From: an uncultured Oscillospiraceae bacterium
GTDB taxonomy: Bacteria > Bacillota > Clostridia > Oscillospirales > Oscillospiraceae
Reading direction: 5' to 3'
Assembly: GCA_947630645.1 (NCBI GenBank)
Contig: CANRIF010000009.1
Span: forward strand, 1 to 42,331
Length of the DNA: 42,331 nt
In this document: positions 19,469 through 34,378 of the stretch, one piece after another
Layout of the letters: the number at the start of each line of letters is the position of its first letter
Numbering within the stretch: the stretch's first letter is position 1
Notes under the pieces: model-generated
Database searches by the model: none
What the model saw: the letters and a program-made list of their open reading frames with translations, nothing else
What the model was told of the DNA's origin: nothing
Translations under genes and position numbers: made by a program

Positions 19469-20149
19469 ATGATCCGGGAGATCCATTCGGAAAAGGATAT
19501 GGAACAGCTGGTGCTGGAGTGGGGGCTGCTGCCCTTTTTCAAGAACGAGATCGAGGGCTTTTCCATCGAGGAACACACCCCGCCGGAACTTTGGTACGAC
19601 AGCGACGGCGACTGGGCGCCCTGGGACTGGAAGGGACCCGTGGCCCGGGCCGGGACCAGCGTATACGGCAAGCTTTTCTGGAAAAAGGCCGGCTTCGTGA
19701 GCATGGAGTGGTTTCCCGACCTTGCCAACTTGCGCCGGGACGGATACGACTTCGACGCCCGCTTTGACGACGGGCTGGCCTCTTACAAGGACAAGGAGCT
19801 GTACGACGCCGTGGTGAAGAGCGGCTCGCTCCAGACTGGACAGCTCAAGAAGCTGCTGGGCTACGGCGGCAAGGACGGAAAAAAGGGCTTTGAGACGGTC
19901 ATCACCCGCCTGCAGATGCAGACCTATCTCTCCGTGGCGGACTTCGATTACGCCACCGACAAGCACGGCGTCCCCTACGGCTGGGGCATCGCCCGCTGGA
20001 CCACCCCGGAGGCCGTTTACGGCTACGACGCCGTCACCGCCGCCTATCCCCGCACGCCGGAGGCGTCCCGCCAGCGGCTGCTGGACCACCTAAAAAAGCG
20101 CCTGCCCCACGCCAGCGAGGCGCAGCTGATAAAGCTGCTGAATATATGA
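19469..20149 (+). CDS. AlkZ-related winged-helix protein (hypothetical)
   Basis: A 226-residue cytoplasmic protein without membrane segments. It resembles proteins labelled 'AlkZ-related' in Clostridia: an N-terminal WAPWDWKGPVARAG region, a strongly aromatic FWKKAGFVSMEWFPDLAN stretch, then a helix-turn-helix-like segment (GSLQTGQLKKLLGY) and FETVITRLQMQTYLSVADFDYA, as in winged-helix modules. AlkZ/YcaQ proteins are glycosylases that unhook DNA crosslinks, but this protein is much shorter and I cannot identify a catalytic motif, so no activity is claimed. It overlaps the next gene by ATGA. Confidence 0.65.
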   Translation: MIREIHSEKDMEQLVLEWGLLPFFKNEIEGFSIEEHTPPELWYDSDGDWAPWDWKGPVARAGTSVYGKLFWKKAGFVSMEWFPDLANLRRDGYDFDARFDDGLASYKDKELYDAVVKSGSLQTGQLKKLLGYGGKDGKKGFETVITRLQMQTYLSVADFDYATDKHGVPYGWGIARWTTPEAVYGYDAVTAAYPRTPEASRQRLLDHLKKRLPHASEAQLIKLLNI

Positions 20150-20808
20150 ACCGCACCCGGGAGGACGGGTCCATGTGCTTTGAAAACGCCTATTTCATCA
20201 ACGGCACGGCCTACGCCGGAAAGTCCACCATGGTGCGGATGCTGGCGGAAAAGCACGGCGGCGTCGCCTGCGGGGAGAATTACCACAACGCCCTCCTGCC
20301 GGAACTTTCCAAAGAGGACTTCCCCGGCCTGACCTATACACGCGACCTGGCCGACTGGCACGACTTCATCCGCCGGACCCCGGAGGAATACGAGGCGTGG
20401 GTGGACCGGACCAGCAGGGAGTGCGAGACGCTGGAGCTGCGGATACTGGCGGGCCTGCGGGACGCGGGCCGGCCGGTGTTCGTGGATACGAACATCTCCC
20501 TGGAGACGCTCCGGCGCGTCGCGCCCCGAAGCCATGTGCTGATCATGCTGGCGGACCCGGAGATATCCGTGCGCCGTTTCTTTGAGCGGCCGGACCGGGA
20601 CAAGCAGTTCCTCTACCGCCTCATTATGGAGGAACCTGACCCGGCCGCCGCGCTGGAGAACTTCCGGCAGTGCCTCAAGCGCATCAACACCCGGGAGCGG
20701 TACGACCGATTTTTGTGCTCCGGCTTCCCCGTGCTTCTCCGGGACGAGAGCCGGACCGTCGAAGAGACACTCTCCCTGGCAGAAAAAGCCTTTGGACTGA
20801 ACAGCTGA
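20146..20808 (+). CDS. P-loop NTPase, kinase-like (hypothetical)
   Basis: A 220-residue protein with a Walker A motif GTAYAGKST at about residues 20-28 after the strand FENAYFINGT, and a plausible Walker B-like strand (RPVFVDTNI, then HVLIMLADPE). The layout, with an E/R-rich helical middle and a lid-like RRFFERPDRDKQF segment, recalls small nucleoside/shikimate-type kinases. No specific substrate motif is recognised. The ATG overlaps the stop of the AlkZ-like gene, so the two are co-translated. An internal Met at residue 10 is a possible alternative start with a nearby GGACGGG. Confidence 0.7.
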   Translation: MNRTREDGSMCFENAYFINGTAYAGKSTMVRMLAEKHGGVACGENYHNALLPELSKEDFPGLTYTRDLADWHDFIRRTPEEYEAWVDRTSRECETLELRILAGLRDAGRPVFVDTNISLETLRRVAPRSHVLIMLADPEISVRRFFERPDRDKQFLYRLIMEEPDPAAALENFRQCLKRINTRERYDRFLCSGFPVLLRDESRTVEETLSLAEKAFGLNS

Positions 20809-20850
20809 CAGCATAGCGGGTATATCAAGTCCTCTTCATCACATCACCGT

Positions 20851-20888
20851 AGCAAAAAAGCAAGTCCCGAAGGACTTGCTTTTTTGCT
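20851..20888. terminator. Strong bidirectional terminator
   Basis: A 17-bp stem (AGCAAAAAAGCAAGTCC / its complement, loop CGAA) with A6 and T6 arms. It separates the plus-strand P-loop gene from the end of the nine-gene minus-strand cluster; the ilvD-like stop codon lies in its arm. Confidence 0.9.
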
Positions 20889-22584
20889 ACATCCCCTTCT
20901 CTCCGGGGACCTCCATCACGGCGCCGTGCCAGGCGTCCGTGACAAGGTATTGAAAGCGTTTGAGATAGTGGCTCTCCGCCTTCAGCGGCGCGCTATGCCA
21001 GCTCTTTTTCCGCCGCGCCAGCTCCTCCTCGCTTACCTCCAGGCTGATCAACTTATCGGGAATGCTGATGGAGATCATATCTCCCTCCTGGACAAATGCG
21101 ATAGGGCCGCCCTCTGCCGCCTCCGGGGCCACATGGCCCACACATGGACCATGGCTGGCGCCGGAAAAACGCCCATCTGTAACAAGCGCTGTACTCTGAC
21201 CAAGGCCGTAGCCGATCAGTGCGGTGGTAGGATTGAGCATCTCCCGCATCCCAGGGCCGCCCTTTGGTCCCTCGTATCGTATCACGATCACGTCACCAGC
21301 ATGGATCGCGCCAGAACGTATCGCCTCCACAGCGGCGTCCTCCCCGTCGAACACACGGGCCGGGCCCCTGTGTACCAACATGTCCGGATGGACGCCAGTG
21401 CGCTTTACAACGGCTCCTACCGGCGCCAGGTTCCCCCGCAGCACGCACAGGCCGCTGTCCGGACGCAACGGGTCGTCGGTGGTCGTGATCACCGCATGAT
21501 CCTGACTGCCGGGGTTATCCCGCAGTTCCTCCTCCCAGGTCCGTCCGGTCACACAGCGTCGGCTCATATCCAAATAGTTGCCGCCCAGCTCCTTCATCAC
21601 CGCCGGTGTTCCGCCGGCCTGGTCAAATTCCAGCATGGTGTATTTTCCTGAAGGGATCACGTTCCCCATCCACGGTGTAGAATCGCCGATTTCGTTGAAC
21701 AGCTCCGGCTCCAACTCATATCCAAAGGCCTTTGCGATAGCGGGCATATGGATCACCGTATTGGTGGAGCCGCCGATCGCCGCGCTGACACGTAATGTGT
21801 TCACGATCGAGCCATAGTCGATATAGTCCCTGGGCTTGATGTCCTCCTGGACCATCTCCACGATCCGCTTGCCGCTGTTGCGGGCATAGCGAAGCTTCTC
21901 CGCCGTCACGGCATGACATGAGCCGCAGCCGGGGAGCGTCAGACCCAGTGTCTCCATCAGGCAGGACATAGTATTCGCCGTGCCCATCATAGGACAGGAA
22001 CCGACACCGCTGCAGACGCTTTTCTGCATCCGTTCGTATTCCTCCGGCGGCATCTCGCCGCGGGCTACCTTGGCCGCCGCCTCTCTGACCATCCATGCGC
22101 CGCCCATGCGCTGGCCATGAAACATCCCACCGACCATAGGGCCGCCCGTCACAAGGATGGATGGGATATTGATCCGCCCAGCCGCCATGGCCATCGCGGG
22201 CACGATCTTATCACAGCTGGCGATCATCACCAGCCCGTCCAGCTGATGCCCCTGGGCGTTTATCTCGATGGAGTCCGCGATCAGGTCCCGGCTCGGCAGC
22301 ACATAGCACATTCCGGGGTGCCCCTGCGTAAGTCCATCACACAGAGCGATCGTGTTGAATTCAAACGGCTGGCCACCTGCTGCCAGGATGCCCTCCTTCA
22401 CCGCAGCCGAAAGCTCTCTCAGATGCTTATGCCCAGGGTGGATCTCGTTCCAGCTGTTGGCAATGCCGATGAAGGGCCGCCGGATGTCTTCTTTGTCCAA
22501 CCCCAGGCCATAGAGCAGAGTCATGTTGCCCGCGTTGAACACTTCCGATTTCATCTGGTCACTGCGATAACTCTCTTTCTTCAT
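20887..22584 (-). CDS. IlvD/Edd-family dehydratase (hydroxy-acid or sugar-acid)
   Basis: A 565-residue iron-sulfur dehydratase. [17 protein letters not shown], the cluster motif [27 protein letters not shown] and [23 protein letters not shown], and the C-terminal [17 protein letters not shown] are family marks. Members remove water from 2,3-dihydroxy acids to give 2-oxo acids. The MGTANTM variant and the catabolic neighbours suggest a sugar-acid substrate rather than branched-chain amino-acid synthesis, although the automatic name would be dihydroxy-acid dehydratase. The start is ATG 22584 with GGAGGGG six bases before it. It is the last gene of the gntR cluster; the terminator overlaps its stop. 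Confidence 0.88.
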
Positions 22585-22610
22585 AAAAACCCCTCCTGTG
22601 CAGCGCCGGC

Positions 22611-23882
22611 TCACTTGCCGATTACGTCCGAGCAGATCGCAAGCGCCTGTGTGTCTGTTACAAGCGCCTTCGTGACCATGGCCTCCGCTTTTATCCGCTC
22701 CAGTATCTCCACCATCTCCTGCTTGTCAGCCGTGAGCCCGTATTTGTCTAAAAACATCTCTACGGAAGCCGTTCCGCTGTTCTTCCCCAGCACATAAGTC
22801 ATCCCGCCGGGAATACCGAACATACTTGGATCGTAGGACGTCTGGATGGGACTGATGCCCATAGGAGAAAAAGTCTTGATTACATGGGTGGATATGCCCG
22901 TTTCGATCTCATAAGGCCGCGAGCCGATGATACATTTCCCTGGCGGTATCTCGTACTTGGCGATACTCTCAAGTATCTTTGCGTTGGGGTATATCTTTTC
23001 CAGAGATATGCCGCAGTCGATCCCGCAAAGCGTCTGAGCGGCGTTGGCGAATTCCTCTGTCGCCACATTGCCGGAGCGGCCGCCCAGACCGTTGAGCGAG
23101 CTGTGGATGACCGAGGCTCCGTTCTTCAGTGCCGCCAGCGCGCAGGCAACGCCAAGCGAAGAATCGTTATGCCCGTGGAACTCCAACTGCAGGTCCGGGA
23201 ACCACTCTTTGAACTGCCGGAACATATACCCCACCGCGTCCGGCGTAGCGCTGCCCATGGTGTCAACGATCGTCAGCGCGTCAAACTTCACCTGCTCGTA
23301 GACCTTCGCCGTCACCCAGCCACAGTAATCCATGGGCGAGCGGAACCAATCCCAACCCATGAAGACGGAGAACAGGCCCGCGCGCTTTGCCTCGGTGAGC
23401 GAGCTTGTCAGCCTCTCTACGAGCTTATCCGGCGTCAGCTTATAGGAGTATGTGTTGTAATAGGGATTCATAGCGTGCTCGACAATGATCCCCTTACAGC
23501 CCGCATCCAGGACTAGGCCCACATCCTTTGGGTTCGCTCTGGCAAACCCGGTGATCATGGCATGCAGGTTCTTTCCTGCGATCCGCTGCAGCGCCCGGAA
23601 TTGTGTCTCGGAAACGGCCGGCATCCCCGCCTCAATCCGTGCCACGCCTATCTCATCCAGGCACTCCGCTATACGTACCCGTTCGTCTTCCAGAAAGGTC
23701 ACGCCGGGCGTCTGCTCCCCGTCGCGCAGCGTGACGTCGTGGATCTGCGCTTTTGCTGGATACCCTTCCAGGACCTCTGGTATTTTATTCACCGGTGGTA
23801 TCCAGTACTTTCCTTCTTTGTAATATGCCTCATCGTTCAGATCATATAGGGGAAACTGCCGCATTTCTTGTGGTATCTTCAT
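22611..23882 (-). CDS. DRE-TIM metallolyase family enzyme (LeuA/homocitrate-synthase-like)
   Basis: A 423-residue HMGL-like TIM-barrel. An N-terminal extension of about 45 residues precedes the metal/substrate motif [16 protein letters not shown]; then EAGMP, the [11 protein letters not shown] metal-binding motif and [14 protein letters not shown], which place it nearest the Claisen-condensing isopropylmalate/homocitrate synthase group. It lacks the LeuA regulatory domain, ending at about the barrel plus a short helical subdomain. The usual reaction joins acetyl-CoA to a 2-oxo acid; whether it condenses or cleaves here is unknown. AGAGG lies before the ATG at 23882. It follows the larA-like gene by 56 bases. 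Confidence 0.85.
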
Positions 23883-23938
23883 CGCTTAACCTCTCGCCCT
23901 TCTCGATATTTTGCTGCCTGAGTTTCTTCTTGTACGGC

Positions 23939-25240
23939 TCATGCATAGAGAAATCCATTTTTCTCCAGCGTTCCATCTTTCCCGAAACGAAACGGCTCCG
24001 GCTCTCCGACGATCTGTATCTGGCTGTTTTCACGAGCCTGCTCCAGCAGAGCCTCTGATATCTCCATTCTGCTCATGCAGAGTGTGTTTCTGATGCGGAG
24101 GATGCGAAGCGCGTTCAGGTCTGTGTCCGGCGCGAGCTTGACCCCCGCTTTGATCGCTTTCTCATCGTTGTCCATGATCATCGGAAGTCTCGCGCTGGCA
24201 GGAACGCGCGCAGTCAGGATATTGACGTAGGCTTTCTCGGCCTCGATCTTGTCAAAGAACCGCCTGGTGGTAACGTCCGCCAGCCCGGCGCCTGTTGCGT
24301 TTCCGCCGCTCTCATCCGTCAGGTCCAGGACCACCAGACGCTTTGTGATCGGTTCGGTCTTCATATGTTCGCTGGCAAAGCGGTGGATGATATTGGGGTC
24401 CATACCTCCCCCTGTGATGTTCTTTCCAATCTCGTCGACGATGAGAACATCCAGGTCTTTGAATGGGATCTGCGGCAGACGCGCGGCGGCCTCCTTCAAA
24501 AGCGCAGGCTCCCTGTCCAGGATGTCCCGCTTTGAAATAGCGCATATCTTGCACGTCTCGTCATACGCATTTTCGATCACACACAGAGACAACAAAAGAT
24601 TGGACCTTTCCAGCGAGACCTTCCCGATCTTCACCAGATTCTCCGGCATATTGTGCATGCCTTGAAAGTGGCAGTAGTCCGCTCCGCGCTGCTTTCCCAA
24701 GCCGATGACGTTCATCTTCACCATGCCGCTCTCATAGCGGCCGCGAAAGGCGGTGTGCGGTTTCACGCGCGCTATCGTCACCGTGTAGTCGGCCGAGGCA
24801 GCGTTCGCGTCAAAATATACAGGGACGCCGTCCACCGTATGTCCGATGATCACCGGCTCCATGCAGGAGCGCACCGGCACGCCCATCGTCTGCTCCGAGA
24901 TGCCCAAATGCTCCAACATCTGTGCCTGTCCCTCGGCCGTTGCGCCGCCGTGGCTGCCCATGGCGGGGACGATGAACACATTCGCGCCGTGCTCCTGGAG
25001 TACGGTTATCGTCGTTTTTACCAGTACAGAAAGGTTTTTCAGCCCGCGGCTGCCCACTGCGAGAGCCACCGTCTTGCCACGGACCTTCTCCGTGTCCCGG
25101 TTGTTTTCCAGTTCTTCGCGTATCCGCCCGCCGACATCCTCCACGCGGCTGTCGTCATATTGGACCCGGATGGCTGCCATTTTAGGCAGCGTGATCGGAT
25201 CGAGCAGAGCGTCAAAGTACCCCAAAGGCGGTAATTTCAT
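23939..25240 (-). CDS. LarA-like (DUF2088) racemase-domain protein
   Basis: A 433-residue protein with the nickel-dependent lactate racemase-type fold: AVGSRGLKNLSVLV, the VPAMGSHGGATAEGQ loop, ARVKPHTAF, and GMVKMNVIGLGKQRGAD. LarA itself racemises lactate with a nickel-pincer nucleotide; relatives act on other 2-hydroxy acids. The family marks are clear, but substrate and cofactor use are not; larB, larC and larE, which make the cofactor, are absent from the window. The start is ATG 25240, seven bases after AAGGAGG; the in-frame Met at 25261 has no ribosome site. No signal peptide or membrane segment. Confidence 0.82.
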   Translation of the reverse strand: MKLPPLGYFDALLDPITLPKMAAIRVQYDDSRVEDVGGRIREELENNRDTEKVRGKTVALAVGSRGLKNLSVLVKTTITVLQEHGANVFIVPAMGSHGGATAEGQAQMLEHLGISEQTMGVPVRSCMEPVIIGHTVDGVPVYFDANAASADYTVTIARVKPHTAFRGRYESGMVKMNVIGLGKQRGADYCHFQGMHNMPENLVKIGKVSLERSNLLLSLCVIENAYDETCKICAISKRDILDREPALLKEAAARLPQIPFKDLDVLIVDEIGKNITGGGMDPNIIHRFASEHMKTEPITKRLVVLDLTDESGGNATGAGLADVTTRRFFDKIEAEKAYVNILTARVPASARLPMIMDNDEKAIKAGVKLAPDTDLNALRILRIRNTLCMSRMEISEALLEQARENSQIQIVGEPEPFRFGKDGTLEKNGFLYA

Positions 25241-25276
25241 GCAACATCCTCCTTTATGCAAACTGTTTGCGTCTCA

Positions 25277-26764
25277 TCATTCCTGCGGTTCCATCATGCT
25301 CCCGCCGCTTTGGACGCGGGCGTACCAATCCCACGCCTGTATGGGATGCTGCGGGATATGCCGCCCTATGCCGCTTCGTTTTGCCGACGCCAAATACTGT
25401 CTGAGCTGGGGTCTGTAGTCAGGGTGGGCGCAGTTTTCTATCAGTAGCTCCGCCCGTTCCTCCGGCGAACACCAACGCAGATCGGCCACGCCCTGCTCCG
25501 TCACGATGATCTGTGTATCGTGCTCTGTGTGGTCAACATGCGAGACCATCGGCACGATGCAGGATATGCTCCCGCCCTTTGCAACAGATTCCGTCGCAAA
25601 GATATTGAGTCTGGCGTTCCGCGCAAAATCGCCGGACCCGCCTATCCCGTTCATTATGGTGCCTCCCATCACATGGGTGGAATTGACATTTCCGCACAGG
25701 TCCACTTCGATCGGGGTATTCATGGCGATTAAGCCGAGGCGGCGCACCACCTCCGGGTGGTTTGTTATCTCCTGCGGGCGCAGGACGAGCCGCTGCTTGA
25801 ACCAGTCAAGATTATCATAAAAACGCTTTTGCGCCTCTGCGCTCAAAGAGACAGCTGTGGTGGAAACATCGCTGAACACGCCTGCCTCCAGCAGCTCCAG
25901 CGCCGCATCCTGACAAGTCTCCGTGTACATGCTCAGGCCCCGAAAGCCTCCGGCGCGCAGCGACCGCAGGACCGCATTCGCCACTGCTCCGACACCGGAC
26001 TGGATGGGCCCCAGCGATGGCGGCAGACGACCTGCCTCTACCTCATCCTCCAGAAATCGCAGGATGTGCCCGCCGATCTTCTCAGCCGCCGGTGAGCTTT
26101 CAGGGAAATGAGGTCTATCATCCGCCCGGTCGCTGAGTACCACAGCCGCGATCTTCTCCGGCGGACACGGGATATACGGCAGGCCGATGCGGTCCGACGG
26201 ATGGATGATCGGGATGACTCTGGCGCTGGGTGGCACACCGATCTCAAAAATATCGTGCATCCCAACGATACTCTCAGGCACATCGGTGTTAAGCTCCACG
26301 ATCACCTTATCGGCCATGCTGACAAAGGCGTCGGACGCGCCCACAGAGCATGTCGGTACAAGGCCATTCTCCAGCACCGCGGCGCACTCGATCACTGCCA
26401 CATCGATCTTGCAGCCGGTGCCCCATCGCAGCATAGCGGGGAGCATCGACAGATGCATGTCCGCGTATGCCACAGCGCCCTCGTTGATGAGCCGGCGCAT
26501 CGTGGGATTCGACTGATATGGAAATCTGCGGGAAACGAGCCCTGCTCTGGCCATGACGCCCTCCAGGCCATCGCCCACCGAAGCGCCAGTAATGAGCGTG
26601 AGCCCCTGCGCGTGGCCAGTCTCCGCCAGCGCCTCCGGCACAAGCTTCGGATAGCCTGTCAGCGTGAAGCCGCTCATCGCTACTGTCATGCCGCTTCGGA
26701 TCAGACCGGCAGCCTGCCGAGCGCTCATCAACTTTGCAGCGTAAAGATCATGTATTCTTTCCAA
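25277..26764 (-). CDS. Acetyl-CoA hydrolase/transferase family CoA transferase (Cat1/AarC-like)
   Basis: A 495-residue family I CoA transferase. Marks are SGFTLTGYPKLVPEAL, the SMYTE motif holding the presumed catalytic Glu, GGTIMNGIGGSGDFARNA, IVPMVSHVDHTEHDTQIIVTEQG (typed in pieces: IVPMVSHVDHTEHD) and ENCAHPDYRP. This set fits succinyl-CoA:acetate or propionyl-CoA:succinate transferases. It would charge or release a pathway acid as its CoA thioester in the cytoplasm. The start appears to be TTG at 26764: an in-frame TGA lies three codons upstream, and GGGTGA precedes the TTG by six bases. The next Met (26728) would cut a conserved helix. Confidence 0.9.
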   Translation of the reverse strand: MERIHDLYAAKLMSARQAAGLIRSGMTVAMSGFTLTGYPKLVPEALAETGHAQGLTLITGASVGDGLEGVMARAGLVSRRFPYQSNPTMRRLINEGAVAYADMHLSMLPAMLRWGTGCKIDVAVIECAAVLENGLVPTCSVGASDAFVSMADKVIVELNTDVPESIVGMHDIFEIGVPPSARVIPIIHPSDRIGLPYIPCPPEKIAAVVLSDRADDRPHFPESSPAAEKIGGHILRFLEDEVEAGRLPPSLGPIQSGVGAVANAVLRSLRAGGFRGLSMYTETCQDAALELLEAGVFSDVSTTAVSLSAEAQKRFYDNLDWFKQRLVLRPQEITNHPEVVRRLGLIAMNTPIEVDLCGNVNSTHVMGGTIMNGIGGSGDFARNARLNIFATESVAKGGSISCIVPMVSHVDHTEHDTQIIVTEQGVADLRWCSPEERAELLIENCAHPDYRPQLRQYLASAKRSGIGRHIPQHPIQAWDWYARVQSGGSMMEPQE

Positions 26765-26789
26765 AACAGGTCACCCATCCGTCCGTGGC

Positions 26790-28301
26790 TCAGGAGAGTA
26801 CGCCTATGTCCCATGGCTGAAATTCGTCCTCTCCCACGCCCAGTATTTCACTTTTTGTCTTCCTCCCGGAGGCGACCGCCAGCAGATCACGGAATATCTC
26901 TTCGCCCATCTGCTCCACCGTTTGCTCGCCGTCGATGATACGGCCGCAATTGATGTCCATGTCCGCCTCCATCCGCCGAAACAGCGGCGTATTGGTCGCC
27001 AGCTTATAGGTCGGCGCCGGGACGCTCCCAAAGCAGGAGCCGCGCCCGGTGGTGAAAGCTACCAGGTTAGCCCCTCCGGCGATCTGACCCGTCACCGCGA
27101 CCGGGTCATAGCCCGGCGTGTCCATAAAGACGAGCCCTCGCTGGCAGACCCGCTCGCCGTAGCGGTAGACCTCCATCAGCCCTGTATCGCCGCCTTTTTT
27201 GATGCCTCCCAGCGACTTTTCCAGCACGTTTGTGATACCGCCGTCCTGGTTGCCGGGCGTCACTCGACCGTTGATCTGCGTATCGCGGCCCTTACTGTAT
27301 TCCATCCACCACTCGATCCGCTCCGTTAGCTTTTGCGCCACTTCCGGCGTGGCAGCCCTTCTGGTGAGCAGATGCTCCGCACCGAATATCTCTGATATCT
27401 CCGAAAGGATCGCCGTACCGCCGCATCGGACCAGTTTCGTCACGGCTGCGCCGAGCGCTGGATTGGCGGAAAGTCCGGAAAAGCTGTCGCTTCCGCCGCA
27501 CTCCAACGCTACCGTCAAATGCTCCGCAGACACAGTTTTCCGCACAGCTTGATTGGCTTCCACCAGCATCCCGCGGACGAACTTGATGCCCTTGTTGATC
27601 GCCGCCGCGGTCCCTCCGATCTGTTGGATCACGATCCGAGCGCAGGGTTTGCCCTCCGGCTCGCCTACCGCCTCGAAGAACTCATCCATATTGTTGCGCT
27701 CGCAGCCCAGGGACACGGCCACGATGCCGGCGATATTCGGATGGCGCATATACCCGCCGATGGTGCGGCGCAGGCAGTCCAGAGGCTCGCCGTTTTCCAT
27801 ACCGCAGCCGCTGTGTACCACAAACGGCACAACGCCATCCACCTGCGGGTACGCCGCAAGGGTCTCCGCATCAAAGGCCCCGGCTATTTTCCTGACCACC
27901 GTCGCCGCGCAGTTGCTCAGGGCAAACACGCCAATGTAGTTGCGCGTGCCGACCCGTCCGTCCGCGCGGACAAATCCGTCGAATGTTGCGTGCATATCAC
28001 GTTGTACGGGCCGGTACTCAGAGCAGAAAGCGTAGTCCTGGGCACCTTGTCCGAAACGGATGTTCTGCGTGTGCATCATCGCTCCCGCAGGTACGTCCTC
28101 GGCCGCATAGCCGATCACCGTGTTATATTTGACTACGGCTTCACCCTCTTTCAGCGGACGTGTGGACAGCTTAAAGCCCCTGGGGATGAAACTCGCCGCC
28201 GTCAACCCTTCCTCCGGGATCGGCGTTCCGGGCTGGATATCCTCCCGGCTCACGACCACATTGTCATTCGGATGAAGACGGATGGTCTTATTGACTGCCA
28301 T
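26790..28301 (-). CDS. UxaA/GarD-family dehydratase (altronate/galactarate type)
   Basis: A 503-residue dehydratase. An N-terminal SAF domain (residues 1-95: KTIRLHPNDNVVVSREDI, GYAAEDVPAG, HTQNIRF) is fused to the catalytic part: FVRADGRVGTRNYIGVFALSNC, VHSGCGM, LGCERNN, ECGGSDSFSGLSANPALGAA, PGNQDGGITNVLEKSLGG and TTGRGSCFGSVPAPTYKLATN. Such enzymes eliminate water from altronate, galactarate or similar acids using iron. The exact substrate is not given by sequence. The start is ATG 28301 with AGAGGTGGG upstream; a longer frame to 28760 runs into tctA. Gap to the CoA transferase is 25 bases. Confidence 0.88.
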   Translation of the reverse strand: MAVNKTIRLHPNDNVVVSREDIQPGTPIPEEGLTAASFIPRGFKLSTRPLKEGEAVVKYNTVIGYAAEDVPAGAMMHTQNIRFGQGAQDYAFCSEYRPVQRDMHATFDGFVRADGRVGTRNYIGVFALSNCAATVVRKIAGAFDAETLAAYPQVDGVVPFVVHSGCGMENGEPLDCLRRTIGGYMRHPNIAGIVAVSLGCERNNMDEFFEAVGEPEGKPCARIVIQQIGGTAAAINKGIKFVRGMLVEANQAVRKTVSAEHLTVALECGGSDSFSGLSANPALGAAVTKLVRCGGTAILSEISEIFGAEHLLTRRAATPEVAQKLTERIEWWMEYSKGRDTQINGRVTPGNQDGGITNVLEKSLGGIKKGGDTGLMEVYRYGERVCQRGLVFMDTPGYDPVAVTGQIAGGANLVAFTTGRGSCFGSVPAPTYKLATNTPLFRRMEADMDINCGRIIDGEQTVEQMGEEIFRDLLAVASGRKTKSEILGVGEDEFQPWDIGVLS

Positions 28302-28342
28302 TGTTCCCACCTCTCTGTCCTGCTCCTTATCGGTCTGCACGT

Positions 28343-29839
28343 TCACTTGTTTTTTGCCTTCTTGCTCCCATGGGTCCTTCGGTACATCACGATGCTGAGC
28401 GTGATGGCGAGGACGATGAATACGCAGCTGAGAGGCCGCGTGAAGAACGACAGGTAGTTCATCTTGCTTGCGATCAGCGCACGGCGGAAATTCGGTTCCA
28501 TGATCGGACCGAGTATGATGCCCAGGACCATAGGTGCGACCGGCATCCCGCATTTGATCATCACATAGCCGAAGACGCCAAGGCCATAAGCGACCCACAT
28601 ATCGAACGGGGAATTGTTCACCGCATAACTGCCGACGACACACATCACGATCACAACAGGAAACAGGATCTTCGGCGGTACGGACAGCAGCTTGGGAAAC
28701 AGCTTTGCGCCGCCCAGGCCGAAAGCGAGCATGGCCAAATTGGCGATGAGCAGTATCCATAGGATAGTGGTCACCAGCTCCGGGTTCTTTGTCATCAGCG
28801 TGGGACCGGGCGTCAGGCCCTGTATCATCAGCGCGCTCAGAAGGATCGCCGTGCAGGGGTCGCCGGGTATGCCCAGGGTCACCATCGGAATGATGGCGCC
28901 GCCTGTCACCGCGTTATTGGAACTTTCACAGGCCAGAATGCCTTCTACCGCCCCTTTGCCAAACTCTTCGGGGTGCTTGGAACAGCGCTTAGCCTCGCTG
29001 TAGGAGAGCCAAGCGGCGATCGTCGGGCCCGTCCCTGGGATAGCGCCAATGACCATTCCAATAAACATAGACTTGAACAGGAGCCACTTGTTGTGCCAAT
29101 ACTCACGGAATTTTGGCATAACTCCCGTAATCTTCTTTGCCACGCCCTTCGCCACGGTATGATCTTCTTCCGCCTTCAGGAACATCTCAGACAGCGCGAA
29201 CAGACCTACCAAGGCCGGAACGGTCGAGATGCCCTTCATAACGCTCATAGACCCAAATGTATAGCGCAGCACGCCGTCCATCGGATCAACGCCGATGCAG
29301 GCCAACAGCATCCCCATGACGCCGGCGAGAATTCCGAACAGCATTGAGCCCTCGGATACGCCGATGATGCAGGACAGGCCGATCAATGCCACGGAGAAAT
29401 ACTCCTGCGGGCCGAATTCCAAAGCGAAACGGGCGATCAGGCTGGCAAAAATCAGCAGGCAGAACGCGGAAAACGTCCCTCCCAGCCAGGAGGCCGTTAC
29501 AGAGAGGCTCAGGGCATGTCCAGCCTCGCCCCTTTGCGCCATAGGGTATCCATCCACCGTCGTGGCGACGTTACCCGGCGCACCGGGCGTGTGGATAAGG
29601 ATCGCAGGGATGCTCCCGCCGTAATAGCCGCCGCAATACAGCCCCAGAAGGAAGCCGAACGCGGAGGAAAACTCCATGCCAAAGGTGACCGGCGTGAAAA
29701 CAGCGATCCCCGTGGCAGCGGTAAGACCTGGTATCGCGCCAAAGATGATCCCGACGAGTACGCCCAGGATCAGCCAAAGCAGACAGCCAGGGTTCAGCAC
29801 TGTCATAAGACCGTCCAAAATGGCCTGAAAACTAATCAT
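28343..29839 (-). CDS. tctA: Tripartite tricarboxylate transporter, large permease TctA
   Basis: A 498-residue TctA-family membrane protein with about twelve helices. Family motifs include GIIFGAIPGLTAATGIAVFTP, YYGGSIPAILIHTPGAPGNVATTVDGYPM (cited in parts: GGSIPAILIHTPG) and the second-half GAIPGTGPTIAAWLSY. TctA, with TctB and the periplasmic/lipoprotein TctC, imports citrate-like or other carboxylates using ion gradients. ATG 29839 follows GGGAGGA by nine bases; a longer frame overlaps tctB. It lies 41 bases before the uxaA-like gene. Confidence 0.95.
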   Translation of the reverse strand: MISFQAILDGLMTVLNPGCLLWLILGVLVGIIFGAIPGLTAATGIAVFTPVTFGMEFSSAFGFLLGLYCGGYYGGSIPAILIHTPGAPGNVATTVDGYPMAQRGEAGHALSLSVTASWLGGTFSAFCLLIFASLIARFALEFGPQEYFSVALIGLSCIIGVSEGSMLFGILAGVMGMLLACIGVDPMDGVLRYTFGSMSVMKGISTVPALVGLFALSEMFLKAEEDHTVAKGVAKKITGVMPKFREYWHNKWLLFKSMFIGMVIGAIPGTGPTIAAWLSYSEAKRCSKHPEEFGKGAVEGILACESSNNAVTGGAIIPMVTLGIPGDPCTAILLSALMIQGLTPGPTLMTKNPELVTTILWILLIANLAMLAFGLGGAKLFPKLLSVPPKILFPVVIVMCVVGSYAVNNSPFDMWVAYGLGVFGYVMIKCGMPVAPMVLGIILGPIMEPNFRRALIASKMNYLSFFTRPLSCVFIVLAITLSIVMYRRTHGSKKAKNK

Positions 29840-29858
29840 ATCTGACCATCCTCCCTTC

Positions 29859-30290
29859 TCAGGGCAAGTAAATGCCAAAAACCTTGGTGAACAGGTAATA
29901 CAGCACCACGGGCAGCAAAATGGAAATGCCCAGCAGGCTGATCCATCTCTTTTCTCCAAACAGGTACATCTCGCCCATAAGGAAAATGATCGTCGGGATC
30001 AAAAATCCAAAGTTTTGAAACGCGAGAATATACAGCCCGACCCAGATGATCGTCGGCAATGACCTGCACAGATTGAACTTTTTCCCATTTTTGCTCTCGT
30101 CTGCAGGTTTCCTCACCTCAACGATCAGGATACACACAGCAGTGATAAACATGATGGCGAACAATACCAAAGGCCAAAAGCTCGGATTAACGCCAGTGGT
30201 ACTCACATACGGCCACGAAAGTGTGTAGAGAAAACCTGCAACTGCAAAAAGGATATAAGAGACGGCTAGTATTATGTTTCTTTTTTTCAT
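29859..30290 (-). CDS. tctB: Tripartite tricarboxylate transporter, small permease TctB
   Basis: A 143-residue TctB-family protein with four hydrophobic segments (starting KKRNIILAVSYILFAVAGFLY, quoted in part: RNIILAVSYILFAVAG) and the typical WPLVLF and IPTIIFLMGEMYLFGEKRW elements. It is the small membrane partner of TctA. ATG 30290 is preferred over GTG 30299 because AAAGGGTGGAGA lies correctly only for the ATG. It sits between tctC and tctA and is separated from tctC by a large hairpin, which may set the ratio of binding protein to permease. Confidence 0.88.
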   Translation of the reverse strand: MKKRNIILAVSYILFAVAGFLYTLSWPYVSTTGVNPSFWPLVLFAIMFITAVCILIVEVRKPADESKNGKKFNLCRSLPTIIWVGLYILAFQNFGFLIPTIIFLMGEMYLFGEKRWISLLGISILLPVVLYYLFTKVFGIYLP

Positions 30291-30314
30291 TCTCTCCACC
30301 CTTTAAAATACTGA

Positions 30315-30356
30315 TCAGCCTGCCCTGAGCCGCGCTGACGGTTCAGGACAGGCTGA
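30315..30356 (-). repeat. Intercistronic hairpin between tctC and tctB
   Basis: An inverted repeat (TCAGCCTGCCCTGA / TCAGGACAGGCTGA) of 13 pairs with one mismatch and a 14-base loop. It lies directly after the binding-protein gene. Only a weak U-tract follows on the minus strand (ATTTT), so it is more likely a partial terminator or 3' RNA-stabilising structure than a full stop. Confidence 0.6.
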
Positions 30357-30387
30357 ATGGTCGCGCTGAATAGCTGCGCCGCGCCGC

Positions 30388-31437
30388 TTAACTGTTCAGG
30401 GCCGCGATAACGTTCTTGAACGACTCAGTGACCTCGCGCATATGCGCTTCGGATTCCTCCGCGCTCATATAGCAGTTGGGGAAGCCCATCTTCTCAAAGG
30501 ATTCGTTGACATAGTCGGATGCCATAGCTTCCGTGTACGCGTCGCGCAAAATGGTGAGTACGGCCGGATCGACGCCGGCGGGAGCGACCAGCGTGGTAAA
30601 GCAGGTGGAGGTGATGTCATACCCTTGGGAGACAAAGGTAGCCACATCAGGGACCACTTCGTCCTGCTCCGCGGAGGACACGCCAAGCGCTTTATACTGG
30701 CCGTCTGCCAGGTTGGCAACGGTATCGGTGCTGAGCAAGCAGCCCACCTCCAGGTGGCCGCCCATGATCGCTGCGTTCACGTCGGCAGCGCCGCCGTAAG
30801 GCACATGGGTCAGCTCGATGTCGGCATACTGCTCAAGCTGGTGCATGAATATCTCCTGGGAGCTGTTCGCACCGGGCGTACCATAGTTCAGACCGGGATT
30901 CTCCTTTGCGTATTCCACGAACTCGTCGATGTTGTCCGCCGGGAAGTCATTGGGGACCACCAGCACGAAGGCTAGGTCGGTCGCCTGACCGATCACATCA
31001 AAGCTGTCGATGTCATACGAGACCGTCGAAGTGTACGGGACCACGGAAATGCATCCAGCCGCGCTCATGAACAGCGTATAGCCGTCCGGCTTCTCAGCGG
31101 CCGCCTGGACAGCGCCCACAGAGCCGCCCGCGCCGGGCACGTTAAGGACCGTGATGGTGCAGTCAAGGATATCGCCCATAGCATCGGCAATGATCCGGCT
31201 GGTCATGTCGTTGGAGCCGCCGGCGGTATAGGGGCTAATCAGCGTGATGGCCTTGGTGGGAAAATCGACCTTCGGTTCTTCGGCCGGCTTTTCTTCTTCG
31301 GCGTCAGACTTCTCCGCCTCGTCCTGCTTGGGGGCTTCCGTCGCAGTGGAGGCGTTCTCCTTATTGCCGGACCCGCCGCAGGCAGCAAGCGAAAGTACCA
31401 TGACGAGCGCCAAAACAAGTGCGAGATACTTTTTCAT
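30388..31437 (-). CDS. tctC: Tripartite tricarboxylate transporter substrate-binding lipoprotein TctC
   Basis: A 349-residue TctC/Bug-family solute receptor. A lipoprotein signal ends at LSLAAC with Cys20, then an acidic/Ala linker of about 35 residues, then the Bug fold: FPTKAITLISPYTAGGSNDMTSRI, VLNVPGAGGSVGA, NYGTPGANSS, LTHVPYGGAADVNAAIMGGHLEVG (cited in part: VPYGGAADVNAAIMGG). It binds the carboxylate substrate outside the membrane. GAAAGGATG precedes the ATG. It lies 83 bases after gntR with no clear promoter of its own, so it is probably read from the gntR promoter. Confidence 0.93.
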   Translation of the reverse strand: MKKYLALVLALVMVLSLAACGGSGNKENASTATEAPKQDEAEKSDAEEEKPAEEPKVDFPTKAITLISPYTAGGSNDMTSRIIADAMGDILDCTITVLNVPGAGGSVGAVQAAAEKPDGYTLFMSAAGCISVVPYTSTVSYDIDSFDVIGQATDLAFVLVVPNDFPADNIDEFVEYAKENPGLNYGTPGANSSQEIFMHQLEQYADIELTHVPYGGAADVNAAIMGGHLEVGCLLSTDTVANLADGQYKALGVSSAEQDEVVPDVATFVSQGYDITSTCFTTLVAPAGVDPAVLTILRDAYTEAMASDYVNESFEKMGFPNCYMSAEESEAHMREVTESFKNVIAALNS

Positions 31438-31520
31438 GTGTTTTCATCCTTTCTGTAAAATTTGATGTTGTTCCACGCATGCAAATAGGACTCAGGACCG
31501 CACGGCTCTCCATTCGCTTT

Positions 31521-32177
31521 TTACAGCTCCCGCAAAATGTCCCGCAGAATGGTCTGGTAGCCGCCGATCTTGTTCTTGCGGATGATCTCAGCGACCTTTT
31601 CCGCCTCTCTGCAGCGGATCAGACGCAGGATCTCCTTATGCTCCTCCAAAGATTCAGCGATACGGTCGGCACGAAGAATATAGAAGTTTCGCGTGATCTT
31701 AGATCTGTTCGCCAGTTGGTCGATCAGATCGATCAGCGTCTGGTTGCCGCAGTGCTTATTGATATATGTGTGGAATTTCGTGTTATAGTCAGAGTATGTG
31801 ACGTTGTCCCCCTCCTTAACACACTTCTCCATCACATCCAAAAGTTTCTGCAGCTCGTCGATCTCCTGCTCCGACATACATTTGACGGCAAGCTGTGCGG
31901 CATAGGGCTCTAAAAGCTGCCTGATCGCGGAGATCTCGCTGTACTCCTTCCCGTCTATCTTCTTCACCGTGGCGCCGGCGTATGGCACCACTTCCACAAG
32001 ACCGTCCTGCTGGAGCATCTTCAGCGCAGCGCGCACAGGCATGGCACTCGTTCCAAGACTCTGGCTGATCTGCGCTACGATGATCCGCTCGCCCGGATTT
32101 CTCTTCCCGGTGACGATCTCGCCTTTCAACGTTCGATAGACACGCTCTTCTTCTGTCAGTTTCTTCATGTCGGCCAT
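31521..32177 (-). CDS. GntR-family (FadR/FCD-type) transcriptional regulator
   Basis: A 218-residue regulator. The N-terminal winged helix holds GEIVTGKRNPGERIIVAQISQ and the recognition helix TSAMPVRAALKMLQQDGLV, ending VPYAGATVKKID. The C-terminal all-helical FCD domain (from about residue 80) carries His residues in YNTKFHTYINKHCGN and SLEEHKEIL that usually bind metal and the effector acid. FCD regulators commonly sense carboxylic or sugar acids and repress catabolic operons. It is the first gene of the cluster and its own promoter carries candidate operators, so autoregulation is likely (inference). GGAGGTG lies seven bases before the ATG. Confidence 0.93.
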   Translation of the reverse strand: MADMKKLTEEERVYRTLKGEIVTGKRNPGERIIVAQISQSLGTSAMPVRAALKMLQQDGLVEVVPYAGATVKKIDGKEYSEISAIRQLLEPYAAQLAVKCMSEQEIDELQKLLDVMEKCVKEGDNVTYSDYNTKFHTYINKHCGNQTLIDLIDQLANRSKITRNFYILRADRIAESLEEHKEILRLIRCREAEKVAEIIRKNKIGGYQTILRDILREL

Positions 32178-32226: not shown

Positions 32227-32254
32227 ATTTTATATCAAATCCTGTATTTGTCAA
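32227..32254 (-). promoter_or_regulatory. SigA-type promoter of the gntR-tct-ilvD cluster
   Basis: Minus strand TTGACA (consensus), 16-base spacer, TAAAAT. It is the only strong promoter seen for the nine-gene cluster. Its -35 lies inside an inverted repeat ATTTGTC/GACAAAT. Confidence 0.75.
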
Positions 32255-32449: not shown

Positions 32450-33493
32450 TCATGCCGTGGCCGGCTCCAGGAGCGTCAGCGTCTTTCTGTCCGCGTCCAG
32501 GCGGCACATCACGCCGTAAGGAATAACGCCGATGGGCTCGGCATGGCCGAAATTGACGTTGCAGAGGATGGACAGGTCCGGCCGTCCGGCCTCCCGGCCC
32601 ACCACACGGCGGTATACCTCCTTATAGGGCTCGTACTTCCTGCGCCGGGCGGGCTTGCCCACCAGGATACCTTTTACCACGTCGAATATCCCCTGGGCGG
32701 CCAGATTGCGTAGATACCAGGTCAGGTTGTCGATGGATATGTCGTCCTCGCTGGTCTCTAAAAACAGCATCTTCCCCATCCACTCCTCCTTGGACGGCCA
32801 TATCGTCGTGCCTACCACCATGGGGAACACGTCCATGCACCCGCCCAGCAGCGGTCCCTCCGCCACGCCGGAACCCTGTATGACCTCATAGCCGATCTCC
32901 TCCGGGTGGTACTGTTTGACCCGGTGCATATTCTCCGGCTTCCACCAGATCTTCTCGTCCTCGTCATCGTACCAGTACGGCGCGGAGGGGATGTCCAATG
33001 TGGGTTTTGGCTCAAAAAGGGTATCCCGGATCATGGCGGCGGTGTAGTCGTTGATCTTGCCATACTCGGAGAAGTTGGTCATCAGGCTGGCGCCGTAATA
33101 GGAGACGAGCCCGGCCTTATAGCACATCAGGTGGTTGATAGTCGTGTCGGAAAAGCCGGTGAAAATCTTGGGGTTATCACGGATCACATCAAAGTCGATG
33201 TAGGGCAACAGGCGGATGGCGTCATCCCCGCCGATGGCGCTGATAACGGCCTTGACGCTCTTATCCCGAAAGGCGTCCATCATGTCCGCCGCCCGGGCTT
33301 CCGGGTGGTCATAGAGATAGTCCCGGCCCTTCAATGCGTTGGGCATGACCTTGACATGAAGCCCATAGTCCCCCTCCAGCCGCTGGCGGGCGATCTCCAG
33401 CTTGTGGATGGCCCAACTCTCCCCCAGCGTGCCCGCCGAAAGGCTGACGACGGCGACGGTGTCGCCTCGTTCCAAATGCTTTGGCTTGATCAT
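32450..33493 (-). CDS. S66-family peptidase (LD-carboxypeptidase / MccF-like)
   Basis: A 347-residue S66 serine peptidase. The nucleophile elbow GFSD puts Ser115 in place, GPLLGGCMDVFPM is the middle motif, MLFLETSEDD supplies the catalytic Glu region, and the C-terminal CNVNFGHAEPIGVIPYGV carries the His. LD-carboxypeptidases trim the terminal D-Ala of muropeptides; MccF relatives instead hydrolyse microcin C-type aminoacyl nucleotides. At about 350 residues with an aromatic insertion (WYDDEDEKIWW), it may belong to the MccF side; I cannot decide. No signal peptide, so cytoplasmic. It overlaps dapF by ATGA. Confidence 0.85.
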   Translation of the reverse strand: MIKPKHLERGDTVAVVSLSAGTLGESWAIHKLEIARQRLEGDYGLHVKVMPNALKGRDYLYDHPEARAADMMDAFRDKSVKAVISAIGGDDAIRLLPYIDFDVIRDNPKIFTGFSDTTINHLMCYKAGLVSYYGASLMTNFSEYGKINDYTAAMIRDTLFEPKPTLDIPSAPYWYDDEDEKIWWKPENMHRVKQYHPEEIGYEVIQGSGVAEGPLLGGCMDVFPMVVGTTIWPSKEEWMGKMLFLETSEDDISIDNLTWYLRNLAAQGIFDVVKGILVGKPARRRKYEPYKEVYRRVVGREAGRPDLSILCNVNFGHAEPIGVIPYGVMCRLDADRKTLTLLEPATA

Positions 33494-34329
33494 ATCGTCA
33501 GTTCCTCGTCGGTGATCTCGCCCTTGCAGACCACGTTGGTAGGGCCGGTGAGGAAGAGGTCGGTGACCCGCTCCCCTGCCCGGCCCACGTCCACGGTGAG
33601 GGTCCCGCCGGGCACGTCCACATGAATATTCTCGCCGCTGACTTCTCCCCGGAGAGCCAGCACCGCCGCCACCGAGCCGGTCCCCGTGCCGCAGGCCAGG
33701 GTGATGTCCTCCACGCCCCGCTCAAAAGTGCGTTCCAGCACATGATCCCGGCCTGTGAGTTCGTAAAAATTCACGTTGGCACCCGTGGGGAACGTCGGGT
33801 GGCGGCGTATCTTCCGCCCCAGCGCCCGCAGCGCGTCCATATCAGCCCCCGCCAGGCCCTGATAAGGCACTACGGCGTGGGGCAGGCCCGGCACGCCAAG
33901 CTCCACGTATGCACAGGGCCACCGTGTACCGTCCACTTCCACGGGCCGGTCCAGGTCGATCAGGCTGGGGGCGTTGAGCCGCACCCGCCAATTCCGGGCG
34001 TCCACGCGCCAGCCCGTTACCGTGCCGGACAGGGTCTCCACCCGCTGCACCGCCTCGGCCAGGCCGTTCTCATATCCATAGCGGCAGATGCACCGGGCCC
34101 CGTTGCCGCACATCTCCGCCTGGGAGCCGTCGGCGTTGAAAAACACCATCCGGAAGTCCCCGCCGTCCTCCGCCGGGCGCACCACCATCAGCCCGTCCGC
34201 CCCGATGGACATCCGGCGGCGGCACAGCGTCCGCGCCAGCCGGGGCAAATCGCTGTCCGGGATGCGGCGGTCCATGTCGTTCAGGATGATAAAGTCGTTC
34301 CCGGTGCCGTTCATCTTCCAAAAATCCAT
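33490..34329 (-). CDS. dapF: Diaminopimelate epimerase
   Basis: A 279-residue DapF. FWKMNGTGNDFIILND opens the protein, and the two catalytic Cys motifs EMCGNGARC and ACGTGTGS are both present, as is NVNFYEL. The enzyme converts LL- to meso-diaminopimelate for lysine and peptidoglycan. AAAGGAGG precedes the ATG at 34329; the longer frame to 34362 crosses the promoter -10. It is followed by an overlapping muropeptide-peptidase-like gene, which could link precursor synthesis and wall recycling (inference). Confidence 0.96.
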   Translation of the reverse strand: MDFWKMNGTGNDFIILNDMDRRIPDSDLPRLARTLCRRRMSIGADGLMVVRPAEDGGDFRMVFFNADGSQAEMCGNGARCICRYGYENGLAEAVQRVETLSGTVTGWRVDARNWRVRLNAPSLIDLDRPVEVDGTRWPCAYVELGVPGLPHAVVPYQGLAGADMDALRALGRKIRRHPTFPTGANVNFYELTGRDHVLERTFERGVEDITLACGTGTGSVAAVLALRGEVSGENIHVDVPGGTLTVDVGRAGERVTDLFLTGPTNVVCKGEITDEELTI

Positions 34330-34350
34330 AGCAGCGCCTCCTTTTCTTTC

Positions 34351-34378
34351 AGTATAGCACACAGAGAAAAGGTTGCAA
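34351..34378 (-). promoter_or_regulatory. dapF promoter sharing its -35 with the divergent promoter
   Basis: Minus strand TTGCAA, 16-base spacer ending TGC, TATACT (extended -10). TTGCAA is its own complement and is also the -35 of the plus-strand promoter. Confidence 0.75.

What the first reader, a model, noticed from the sequence alone, without database searches (positions are those of the whole stretch)
20887..32177. Nine-gene carboxylate cluster that may encode an undescribed hydroxy-acid route
Seen: gntR(FCD)-tctC-tctB-tctA-uxaA-like-cat1-like-larA-like-leuA-like-ilvD-like, all on the minus strand, small gaps, one strong promoter and one strong terminator. Known: each family acts on hydroxy-, oxo- or CoA-linked carboxylic acids. 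Inference: a TctABC substrate with several hydroxyls is racemised (LarA-like), dehydrated (UxaA- and IlvD-like), carried through a CoA ester (Cat1-like) and joined or split by the DRE-TIM enzyme. The usual sugar-acid partners (KDG kinase, KDPG aldolase, uronate isomerase, tagaturonate reductase) are missing, so standard hexuronate or galactarate routes do not fit. I cannot name the substrate.
Basis: partly seen in the sequence, partly recalled or inferred. Interest (0 to 1): 0.78.

Follow-up and report, generated by a model that had tools for sequence, protein, structure and literature searches.

The report
Hydroxy-acid degradation operon, substrate unknown
A block of nine genes, apparently gained in one piece by an uncultured bacterium, looks like an uptake-and-breakdown route for an unknown polyhydroxy acid, and its carbon-bond-cutting step seems to be done by an unusual relative of leucine-pathway enzymes that has lost their usual catalytic residue.

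Summary
The nine-gene cluster is real and one unit: gntR(FCD)-tctC-tctB-tctA-uxaA/garD-like-cat1/scpC-larA-like-HMGL/leuA-like-ilvD, all minus strand, gaps 19-97 bp, one 11/12 promoter, one 19-bp terminator. In five genus relatives the flanking genes occur together without it, and it is lower in G+C (57.6% against 63-64%), so it was probably acquired in one piece. The same enzyme set, with parts swapped, recurs: HMGL-like enzyme of the same clade + UxaA + LarA homologue(s) (some with IlvD) + butyrate kinase/phosphotransbutyrylase instead of Cat1 + another importer, in Bacillota, a Kosmotogaceae MAG and Cryosericum. The 'LeuA-like' protein has the homocitrate/isopropylmalate synthase fold, but all 18 clade rows (17 distinct) lack the synthases' catalytic His and carry a Glu that no His-bearing row has. 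A condensing role is doubtful; I think it is a lyase/aldolase. The LarA homologue belongs to group 22, for which I found no tested activity. Best reading: TctABC imports a polyhydroxy acid, LarA epimerises C2, UxaA/IlvD dehydrate it to a 2-oxo-3-deoxy acid, the HMGL-like enzyme cuts it, the CoA-transferase makes acetate. Substrate and reactions are unproven. No paper listed in seven open-licence searches described this gene set.

The parts
31521..32177 (-). GntR/FCD regulator, probably of this operon
   Evidence: PF00392, PF07729
32201..32244 (.). operator-like 11-bp perfect inverted repeat CAGGATTTGAT/ATCAAATCCTG overlapping the -10 box
   Evidence: 7 of 2000 shuffles contain such a repeat
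32227..32254 (-). sigma-70-type promoter TTGACA-16-TAAAAT
   Evidence: 12 of 2000 shuffles reach 11/12
30388..31437 (-). TctC solute-binding protein
   Evidence: PF03401
29859..30290 (-). TctB small membrane subunit
   Evidence: PF07331
28343..29839 (-). TctA large membrane subunit
   Evidence: PF01970; start
26790..28301 (-). UxaA/GarD-family dehydratase, fused SAF + large domain
   Evidence: PF08666, PF04295, PF20629; best solved match galactarate dehydratase 6u7l; below the GarD cut-off, 354 of 731 bits
25277..26764 (-). Cat1/ScpC-type CoA-transferase
   Evidence: NF053853 succinyl-CoA:acetate CoA-transferase, 633 bits against 500
23939..25240 (-). LarA homologue, nickel-pincer isomerase group 22
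   Evidence: NF052515, 499.5 bits against 400; R66, H98, H163, K176, H192 kept in at least 95% of 30 group-22 proteins
22611..23882 (-). HMGL/LeuA-like DRE-TIM enzyme without the catalytic His; proposed lyase/aldolase
20887..22584 (-). IlvD-type dihydroxy-acid dehydratase
   Evidence: TIGR00110, 669 bits against 618
20846..20890 (-). intrinsic terminator, 19-bp stem
   Evidence: fold -32.1 kcal/mol

Best explanation
A horizontally acquired, GntR-controlled operon for non-phosphorylative breakdown of an imported polyhydroxy acid (aldonate or aldarate kind). TctABC takes up the acid; the LarA group-22 enzyme inverts C2 by nickel-pincer hydride transfer; the UxaA/GarD-like and IlvD-like enzymes each dehydrate one stereochemical form to a 2-oxo-3-deoxy acid; the His-less DRE-TIM enzyme binds the 2-oxo acid on its metal and cuts it, most likely a retro-aldol cut giving pyruvate and an aldehyde or oxo-acid, perhaps with Glu135 in the place of the lost His; pyruvate-derived acetyl-CoA is turned to acetate by the Cat1-type transferase with succinate as CoA acceptor, which lets succinyl-CoA synthetase make ATP. 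Shown: gene set, unit structure, family assignments, empty site in relatives, recurrence of the module, residues kept, lost and gained. Inferred: every reaction, the direction of the C-C step, the role of Glu135, and the substrate class.
For: Unit; five relatives with both flanks and no cluster gene between them; G+C 57.6% against 64.0% and 63.1% on the two sides. Recurring module: among 17 other loci (16 distinct) of the same HMGL clade, UxaA family in 11 (10 distinct), any LarA in 9 (8), Buk and/or Ptb in 10 (9), and all those 10 have UxaA; UxaA is in 3 of 41 other His-less loci. Sugar-acid flavour: 139 operon neighbours of LarA group 22 (from 27 of 29 loci) are led by carboxylate importers, IlvD/EDD (4), UxaA/GarD (4), HGD-D (4), DHDPS-family (4) and RraA-like (3). 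DHDPS/RraA relatives occur in 5 of 29 LarA-22 loci and 0 of 17 HMGL-clade loci, window included, as expected if the HMGL enzyme fills that slot (p 0.14). Catalytic residues: all 18 clade rows (17 distinct) lack the His, and Glu135 is in 59 of 59 His-less rows and 0 of 58 His-bearing rows (His role from passages of PMC11532901).
Against: No substrate or activity is shown. 5 of 29 against 0 of 17 is not significant (p 0.14), and the aldolase queries came from those same LarA-22 loci. L095, the nearest HMGL relative by tree path, has a class II aldolase-like gene (PF00596), so another aldolase can be present. The HMGL protein is structurally closest to condensing enzymes, and an Asn mutant of the corresponding His in MAMS keeps weak activity, so condensation is not excluded. 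The window protein also differs from its clade at one GERxGN position (GGRSGN). In L097, L129 and L240 clade members sit with a 2-hydroxyacid dehydrogenase and TRAP genes, not UxaA; L065, L103 and L164 have none of the module enzymes. LarC, the nickel insertase for the cofactor, was not found in this 73%-complete genome, and of five genomes with LarA in the Buk/Ptb module that were tested only one (G548) has it. No other genome with all nine genes was seen.
Confidence: 0.42

Rival explanations
1. CoA-ester lyase route, like citrate or citramalate fermentation: the CoA-transferase loads CoA from acetyl-CoA onto a 2-substituted malate, and the HMGL-like enzyme cleaves the thioester to acetyl-CoA and a 2-oxo acid. 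Butyrate kinase plus phosphotransbutyrylase, or SucCD-like ligases, do the same loading in other loci.
For: Buk/Ptb in 10 of 17 clade loci, and SucC/SucD-like genes beside three other His-less HMGL genes (L105, L112, L114); Gln57, at the place of the CoA-contacting Gln93 of MAMS, is kept in 18 of 18 rows.
Against: Does not explain why UxaA-, IlvD- and LarA-type enzymes go with it; dehydratases of these families make 2-oxo acids, not 2-substituted malates (recalled). Catalytic features of HMG-CoA lyase were not tested.
Confidence: 0.25
2. The HMGL-like enzyme is a true condensing synthase (2-oxo acid + acetyl-CoA to 2-alkylmalate) and the operon lengthens or disposes of a 2-oxo acid.
Against: His388 position is Ser (Val in 16 of 18 rows) and the Glu227 column is Trp (MAFFT) or a gap (phmmer); that Glu is itself present in only 47 of 58 His-bearing rows. 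The 25 NCBIfam matches shown are all below cut-off. No LeuB/LeuCD-like partner among the nine genes.
Confidence: 0.12
3. 2,3-Dihydroxy branched acids or pantoate-like acids rather than sugar acids: LarA racemises, IlvD makes a branched 2-oxo acid, acyl-CoA is turned to acid with ATP yield.
For: LarA family members racemise 2,3-dihydroxyisovalerate (PMC11770544 abstract); one LarA-22 locus (L037) has IlvD, a ketopantoate hydroxymethyltransferase-family gene (PF02548) and a reductase-like gene (by eye); Buk/Ptb could serve branched acyl-CoA.
Against: Leaves the UxaA/GarD-like enzyme, the commonest partner of this HMGL clade, without a role.
Confidence: 0.12
4. Loose collection of carboxylate genes with no single pathway.
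For: No other genome was seen with all nine genes.
Against: Tight spacing, one promoter and terminator, empty site, recurrence of the enzyme set.
Confidence: 0.06

Closest known systems
Module LIV-type ABC + (IlvD) + LarA homologue(s) + HMGL-like + SAF/UxaA + butyrate kinase + phosphotransbutyrylase, seen here in L098-L102, L130-L133 (no description found in print)
   Same: HMGL-like enzyme of the same clade, UxaA family, LarA superfamily, IlvD in L098, L101 and L133, an acyl-CoA/acid step
   Different: LIV ABC importer instead of TctABC; LarA nearer the LarAH6/LarAH10 models (L099) instead of group 22; split instead of fused UxaA; Buk/Ptb instead of CoA-transferase; PucR instead of GntR in several
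Hexuronate (UxaA) and galactarate/glucarate (GarD) routes (recalled)
   Same: UxaA/GarD-family dehydratase
   Different: no uronate isomerase, reductase, KDG kinase or KDPG-type aldolase among the nine genes; UxaA-like protein is below the GarD cut-off
LarA homologues for malate, gluconate or 2-hydroxyglutarate (PMC7583248, PMC11770544)
   Same: NPN-dependent 2-hydroxy acid racemase/epimerase superfamily
   Different: group 22 has no tested activity in the parts I read; accompanied here by two dehydratases and a DRE-TIM enzyme
Isopropylmalate, homocitrate and citramalate synthases
   Same: fold, DRE motif, metal-binding HxH, GxGxRxGN region
   Different: catalytic His missing, Glu135 gained; shorter (423 aa), without the extra regulatory domain of many LeuA proteins (recalled)

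Membership tests
Tripartite tricarboxylate transporter (TctABC) | TctA, TctB and TctC together | tested here: met
   PF01970, PF07331, PF03401
LarA superfamily, NPN isomerase group 22 | NF052515 score over curated cut-off | tested here: met
   499.5 against 400 bits
LarA superfamily, NPN isomerase group 22 | Arg, two catalytic His, Lys and Ni-binding His of LarA | tested here: met
   R66, H98, H163, K176, H192 line up with LarAH6/10-like proteins and are kept in at least 95% of 30; LarA itself was not in the alignment
LarA superfamily, NPN isomerase group 22 | cofactor-making genes in the genome (LarC tested; LarB, LarE not) | tested here: inconclusive
   PF01969 absent in the 73%-complete genome; present in 14 of 21 other LarA-22 genomes, 8 of 19 family genomes without it, and 2 of 9 HMGL-clade genomes
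Claisen-type DRE-TIM synthases (IPMS/homocitrate/citramalate) | overall fold with C-terminal subdomains | tested here: met
Claisen-type DRE-TIM synthases (IPMS/homocitrate/citramalate) | catalytic His (His388 in MAMS) | tested here: not met
   Ser331; no His in 18 of 18 clade rows
Claisen-type DRE-TIM synthases (IPMS/homocitrate/citramalate) | curated NCBIfam cut-offs | tested here: not met
   best 253 against 517 bits; all 25 shown of 26 are below
Galactarate dehydratase GarD (TIGR03248) | curated cut-off | tested here: not met
   354 against 731 bits; family-level domains met
Dihydroxy-acid dehydratase IlvD (TIGR00110) | curated cut-off | tested here: met
   669 against 618 bits; substrate not testable
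Succinyl-CoA:acetate CoA-transferase ScpC (NF053853) | curated cut-off | tested here: met
   633 against 500 bits; TIGR03458 missed, 642 against 659
Hexuronate or galactarate degradation operon | KDG kinase/aldolase, isomerase or reductase partners among the nine genes | tested here: not met
   Pfam of all nine; rest of the genome not tested
HMG-CoA lyase or 4-hydroxy-2-oxovalerate aldolase | catalytic residues of those subgroups | not tested

The most novel reading that the evidence does not exclude
The His-less, Glu135-bearing HMGL-like clade is an undescribed C-C lyase (a DRE-TIM aldolase for 2-oxo-3-deoxy acids) at the centre of an undescribed non-phosphorylative route for polyhydroxy acids, found in at least Bacillota, Thermotogota and Cryosericota, in which nickel-pincer epimerases feed one or two dehydratases and acyl-CoA energy conservation replaces sugar-acid kinases.
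Probability: 0.33. Interest if true: 0.72.

Novelty: new variant of a known kind. Interest (0 to 1): 0.55.

Why it matters
If right, it gives a substrate context to LarA group 22, whose activity I found unassigned in what I read, corrects the automatic naming of a set of 'isopropylmalate/homocitrate synthase-like' proteins in acid-using operons, and makes an anaerobic sugar-acid route testable with a handful of enzymes.

Tried and rejected
Condensing synthase as first choice: set aside on the missing catalytic His. Identical nine-gene cluster elsewhere: HMGL searches over overlapping samples of family (2 of 200 at E<=1e-60), order (1 of 295 at 1e-70), phylum (37 of 398 at 1e-60), genus (1 of 35 at 1e-60) and class (2 of 391 at 1e-80), own genome counted in each; stretches around 34 of the 38 other phylum matches, and around the one other family and class match each, were fetched and none held all nine genes. 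A first genome-contig scan with the single protein found nothing; the scan with alignment A1 gave 80 loci, of which 20 were annotated for neighbours and 23. Plasmids: no match at 1e-60. LarC as a marker of LarA-22: not specific. Structure neighbours do not separate synthase from lyase function. Literature: in an open-licence library; supplementary files, among them the gene-context table of PMC7583248, could not be read. Sulfolactate-type use (SuyAB are UxaA relatives, recalled) was considered and not pursued: it gives no role to IlvD or HMGL.
Full report
Setting. The window is a whole contig (G000:C9) of a 1.87-Mb, 134-contig genome, 73% complete.

With the likely starts the gaps are 19-97 bp. 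A TTGACA-16-TAAAAT promoter (11 of 12) sits upstream of gntR, overlapped by an 11-bp perfect inverted repeat. In 2000 mononucleotide shuffles of the 273-bp region, 12 reach an 11/12 promoter and 7 hold such a repeat. Directly after ilvD is a 19-bp-stem terminator, -32.1 kcal/mol. Across the region the promoter and terminator scans as a whole were no richer than shuffles.

It was probably gained as one block. G+C is 57.6% over the cluster, 64.0% to its left and 63.1% to its right, though single 2-kb bins outside go as low as 57.7%. An AlkZ-related gene and its neighbour (20146-20808, plus strand) flank it on one side, the S66 peptidase on the other. In 5 of the 20 genus stretches that I fetched (L220, L223, L224, L233, L237) genes of both sides are present with no cluster gene between them. 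In L223 and L224 the two immediate neighbours are about 56 bp apart; in L220 some 2.7 kb of other sequence lies between the AlkZ-related gene and the peptidase. The other 15 stretches show the peptidase without the left flank. The HMGL-like gene is in 1 of 35 genus genomes, this one.

What each enzyme is. The LarA homologue passes the NCBIfam model 'nickel pincer cofactor-dependent isomerase, group 22' (499.5 against 400 bits). Positions that line up with the catalytic and cofactor residues in LarAH6/10-like proteins (R66, H98, H163, K176, H192) are kept in at least 95% of 30 group-22 proteins. In PMC7583248 (passages and section 8 read) and PMC11770544 (outline, abstract and section 6 read) I found no activity for group 22; that the NCBIfam number is the same as that paper's is assumed. 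The UxaA-like protein has SAF and both GD_AH domains; its only NCBIfam match is GarD, far below cut-off. IlvD passes TIGR00110 and the CoA-transferase passes NF053853, succinyl-CoA:acetate.

The enzyme set recurs. I looked at 17 other GWD loci (16 distinct contigs). A UxaA-family gene is in the fetched stretch in 11 (10 distinct), a LarA homologue in 9 (8), IlvD in 4, Buk and/or Ptb in 10 (9); all ten with Buk/Ptb have UxaA. In 41 other His-less loci UxaA is in 3 and LarA in 4 (Fisher p 1.4e-5 and 8e-4, near-copies included and kinship not corrected). The clearest form is LIV ABC - (IlvD) - one or two LarAs - HMGL - SAF/UxaA - Buk - Ptb in the window's phylum (L098-L102, L133; L131 equals L100 and is titled Firmicutes), with variants in a Kosmotogaceae MAG (L130) and Candidatus Cryosericum odellii (L132). 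The two LarAs in L099 score best, below cut-off, with LarAH10 and LarAH6; Buk passes its cut-off, Ptb's best is below. L095, the nearest relative by tree path, joins TctA, TctC, SAF/UxaA and the HMGL enzyme, but also a class II aldolase-like gene. The other clade loci tell a different story: L097, L129 and L240 have a 2-hydroxyacid dehydrogenase and TRAP genes, L096 has IlvD with alcohol-dehydrogenase-like genes (by eye), and L065, L103 and L164 show none of the module enzymes.

LarA group 22 neighbours. Of 200 family genomes 22, own included, carry a group-22 gene over cut-off. I took stretches around all 29 other over-cut-off copies. Their 139 operon neighbours, from 27 of the 29 loci, are led by TRAP, LIV, Tct and GntP importers, IlvD/EDD (4), UxaA/GarD (4), HGD-D (4), DHDPS (4) and RraA-like (3) (25 of 107 families shown). 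By BLAST from five such DHDPS/RraA proteins, 5 of 29 LarA-22 loci and 0 of 17 GWD loci (window included) hold one (p 0.14; the queries come from the LarA-22 loci themselves). This is weak but fits the HMGL-like enzyme as the aldolase of its own clusters.

Mechanism. I therefore favour import, C2 epimerisation, dehydration by two dehydratases of different family (perhaps one for each epimer), retro-aldol cleavage by the HMGL-like enzyme, and acetate formation through the CoA-transferase. The CoA-ester lyase scheme is the main rival. All reactions are inferred; the substrate is not identified.

Cofactor caveat. LarC (PF01969) was not found in this incomplete genome. It is present in 14 of 21 other LarA-22 genomes, in 8 of 19 family genomes without LarA-22, and in 2 of 9 genomes with HMGL-clade loci; of the five genomes there whose module holds LarA (G548, G507, G807, G520, G670) only G548 has it. 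G078, a single-contig genome given as 100% complete, has LarA-22 and no LarC match. Either these cells get the cofactor otherwise, or their LarAs differ from the model; this counts against the nickel-pincer step.

Literature. Searches returned no paper whose listing described this gene set.

Noticed in passing
L050 and L056 (LarA-22 loci): LarA group 22 sits with a family III CoA-transferase, 2-hydroxyglutaryl-CoA dehydratase subunits and what looks by eye like its activator, acyl-CoA dehydrogenase and a TRAP importer: possibly a racemase-fed 2-hydroxyacyl-CoA dehydratase route.
   Followed up: partly
G078 (L049), module genomes G507, G807, G520, G670, and the window genome: LarA homologues in genomes without a LarC (PF01969) match, one of them a single-contig, 100% complete genome; cofactor source unclear.
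   Followed up: partly
window 22611-23882 and the 58 other His-less rows of the HMGL alignment: Glu at window protein position 135 goes strictly with loss of the synthase His (59 of 59 against 0 of 58), a possible marker for a whole unassigned DRE-TIM subgroup in acid-using operons.
   Followed up: partly
L062 5266-6534 (own genome, C19): A second LarA homologue beside a malic-enzyme-like gene and a TRAP importer, reading like a malate racemase cluster (by eye).
   Followed up: no
L105, L112, L114: Other His-less HMGL-like genes sit with SucC/SucD-like genes, a 2-hydroxyacid dehydrogenase, a cupin-like and a creatininase-like gene (the last two by eye).
   Followed up: no
L108, L111: His-less HMGL-like genes beside pyruvate-formate-lyase-like glycyl radical enzymes with activase-like genes and TRAP (by eye).
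   Followed up: no
L107, L110: HMGL-like proteins whose DRE motif itself is changed (RESEQ, REAEQ), beside cyclase-like genes.
   Followed up: no
L002 (own genome, C1): A second IlvD/EDD protein, 42% identical to the window's, followed by a LacI-like regulator rather than ilv genes (by eye).
   Followed up: no
window 33490-34362: A DapF-like epimerase gene directly beside an S66 peptidase; the pair is also seen in 5 of 20 genus stretches.
   Followed up: no
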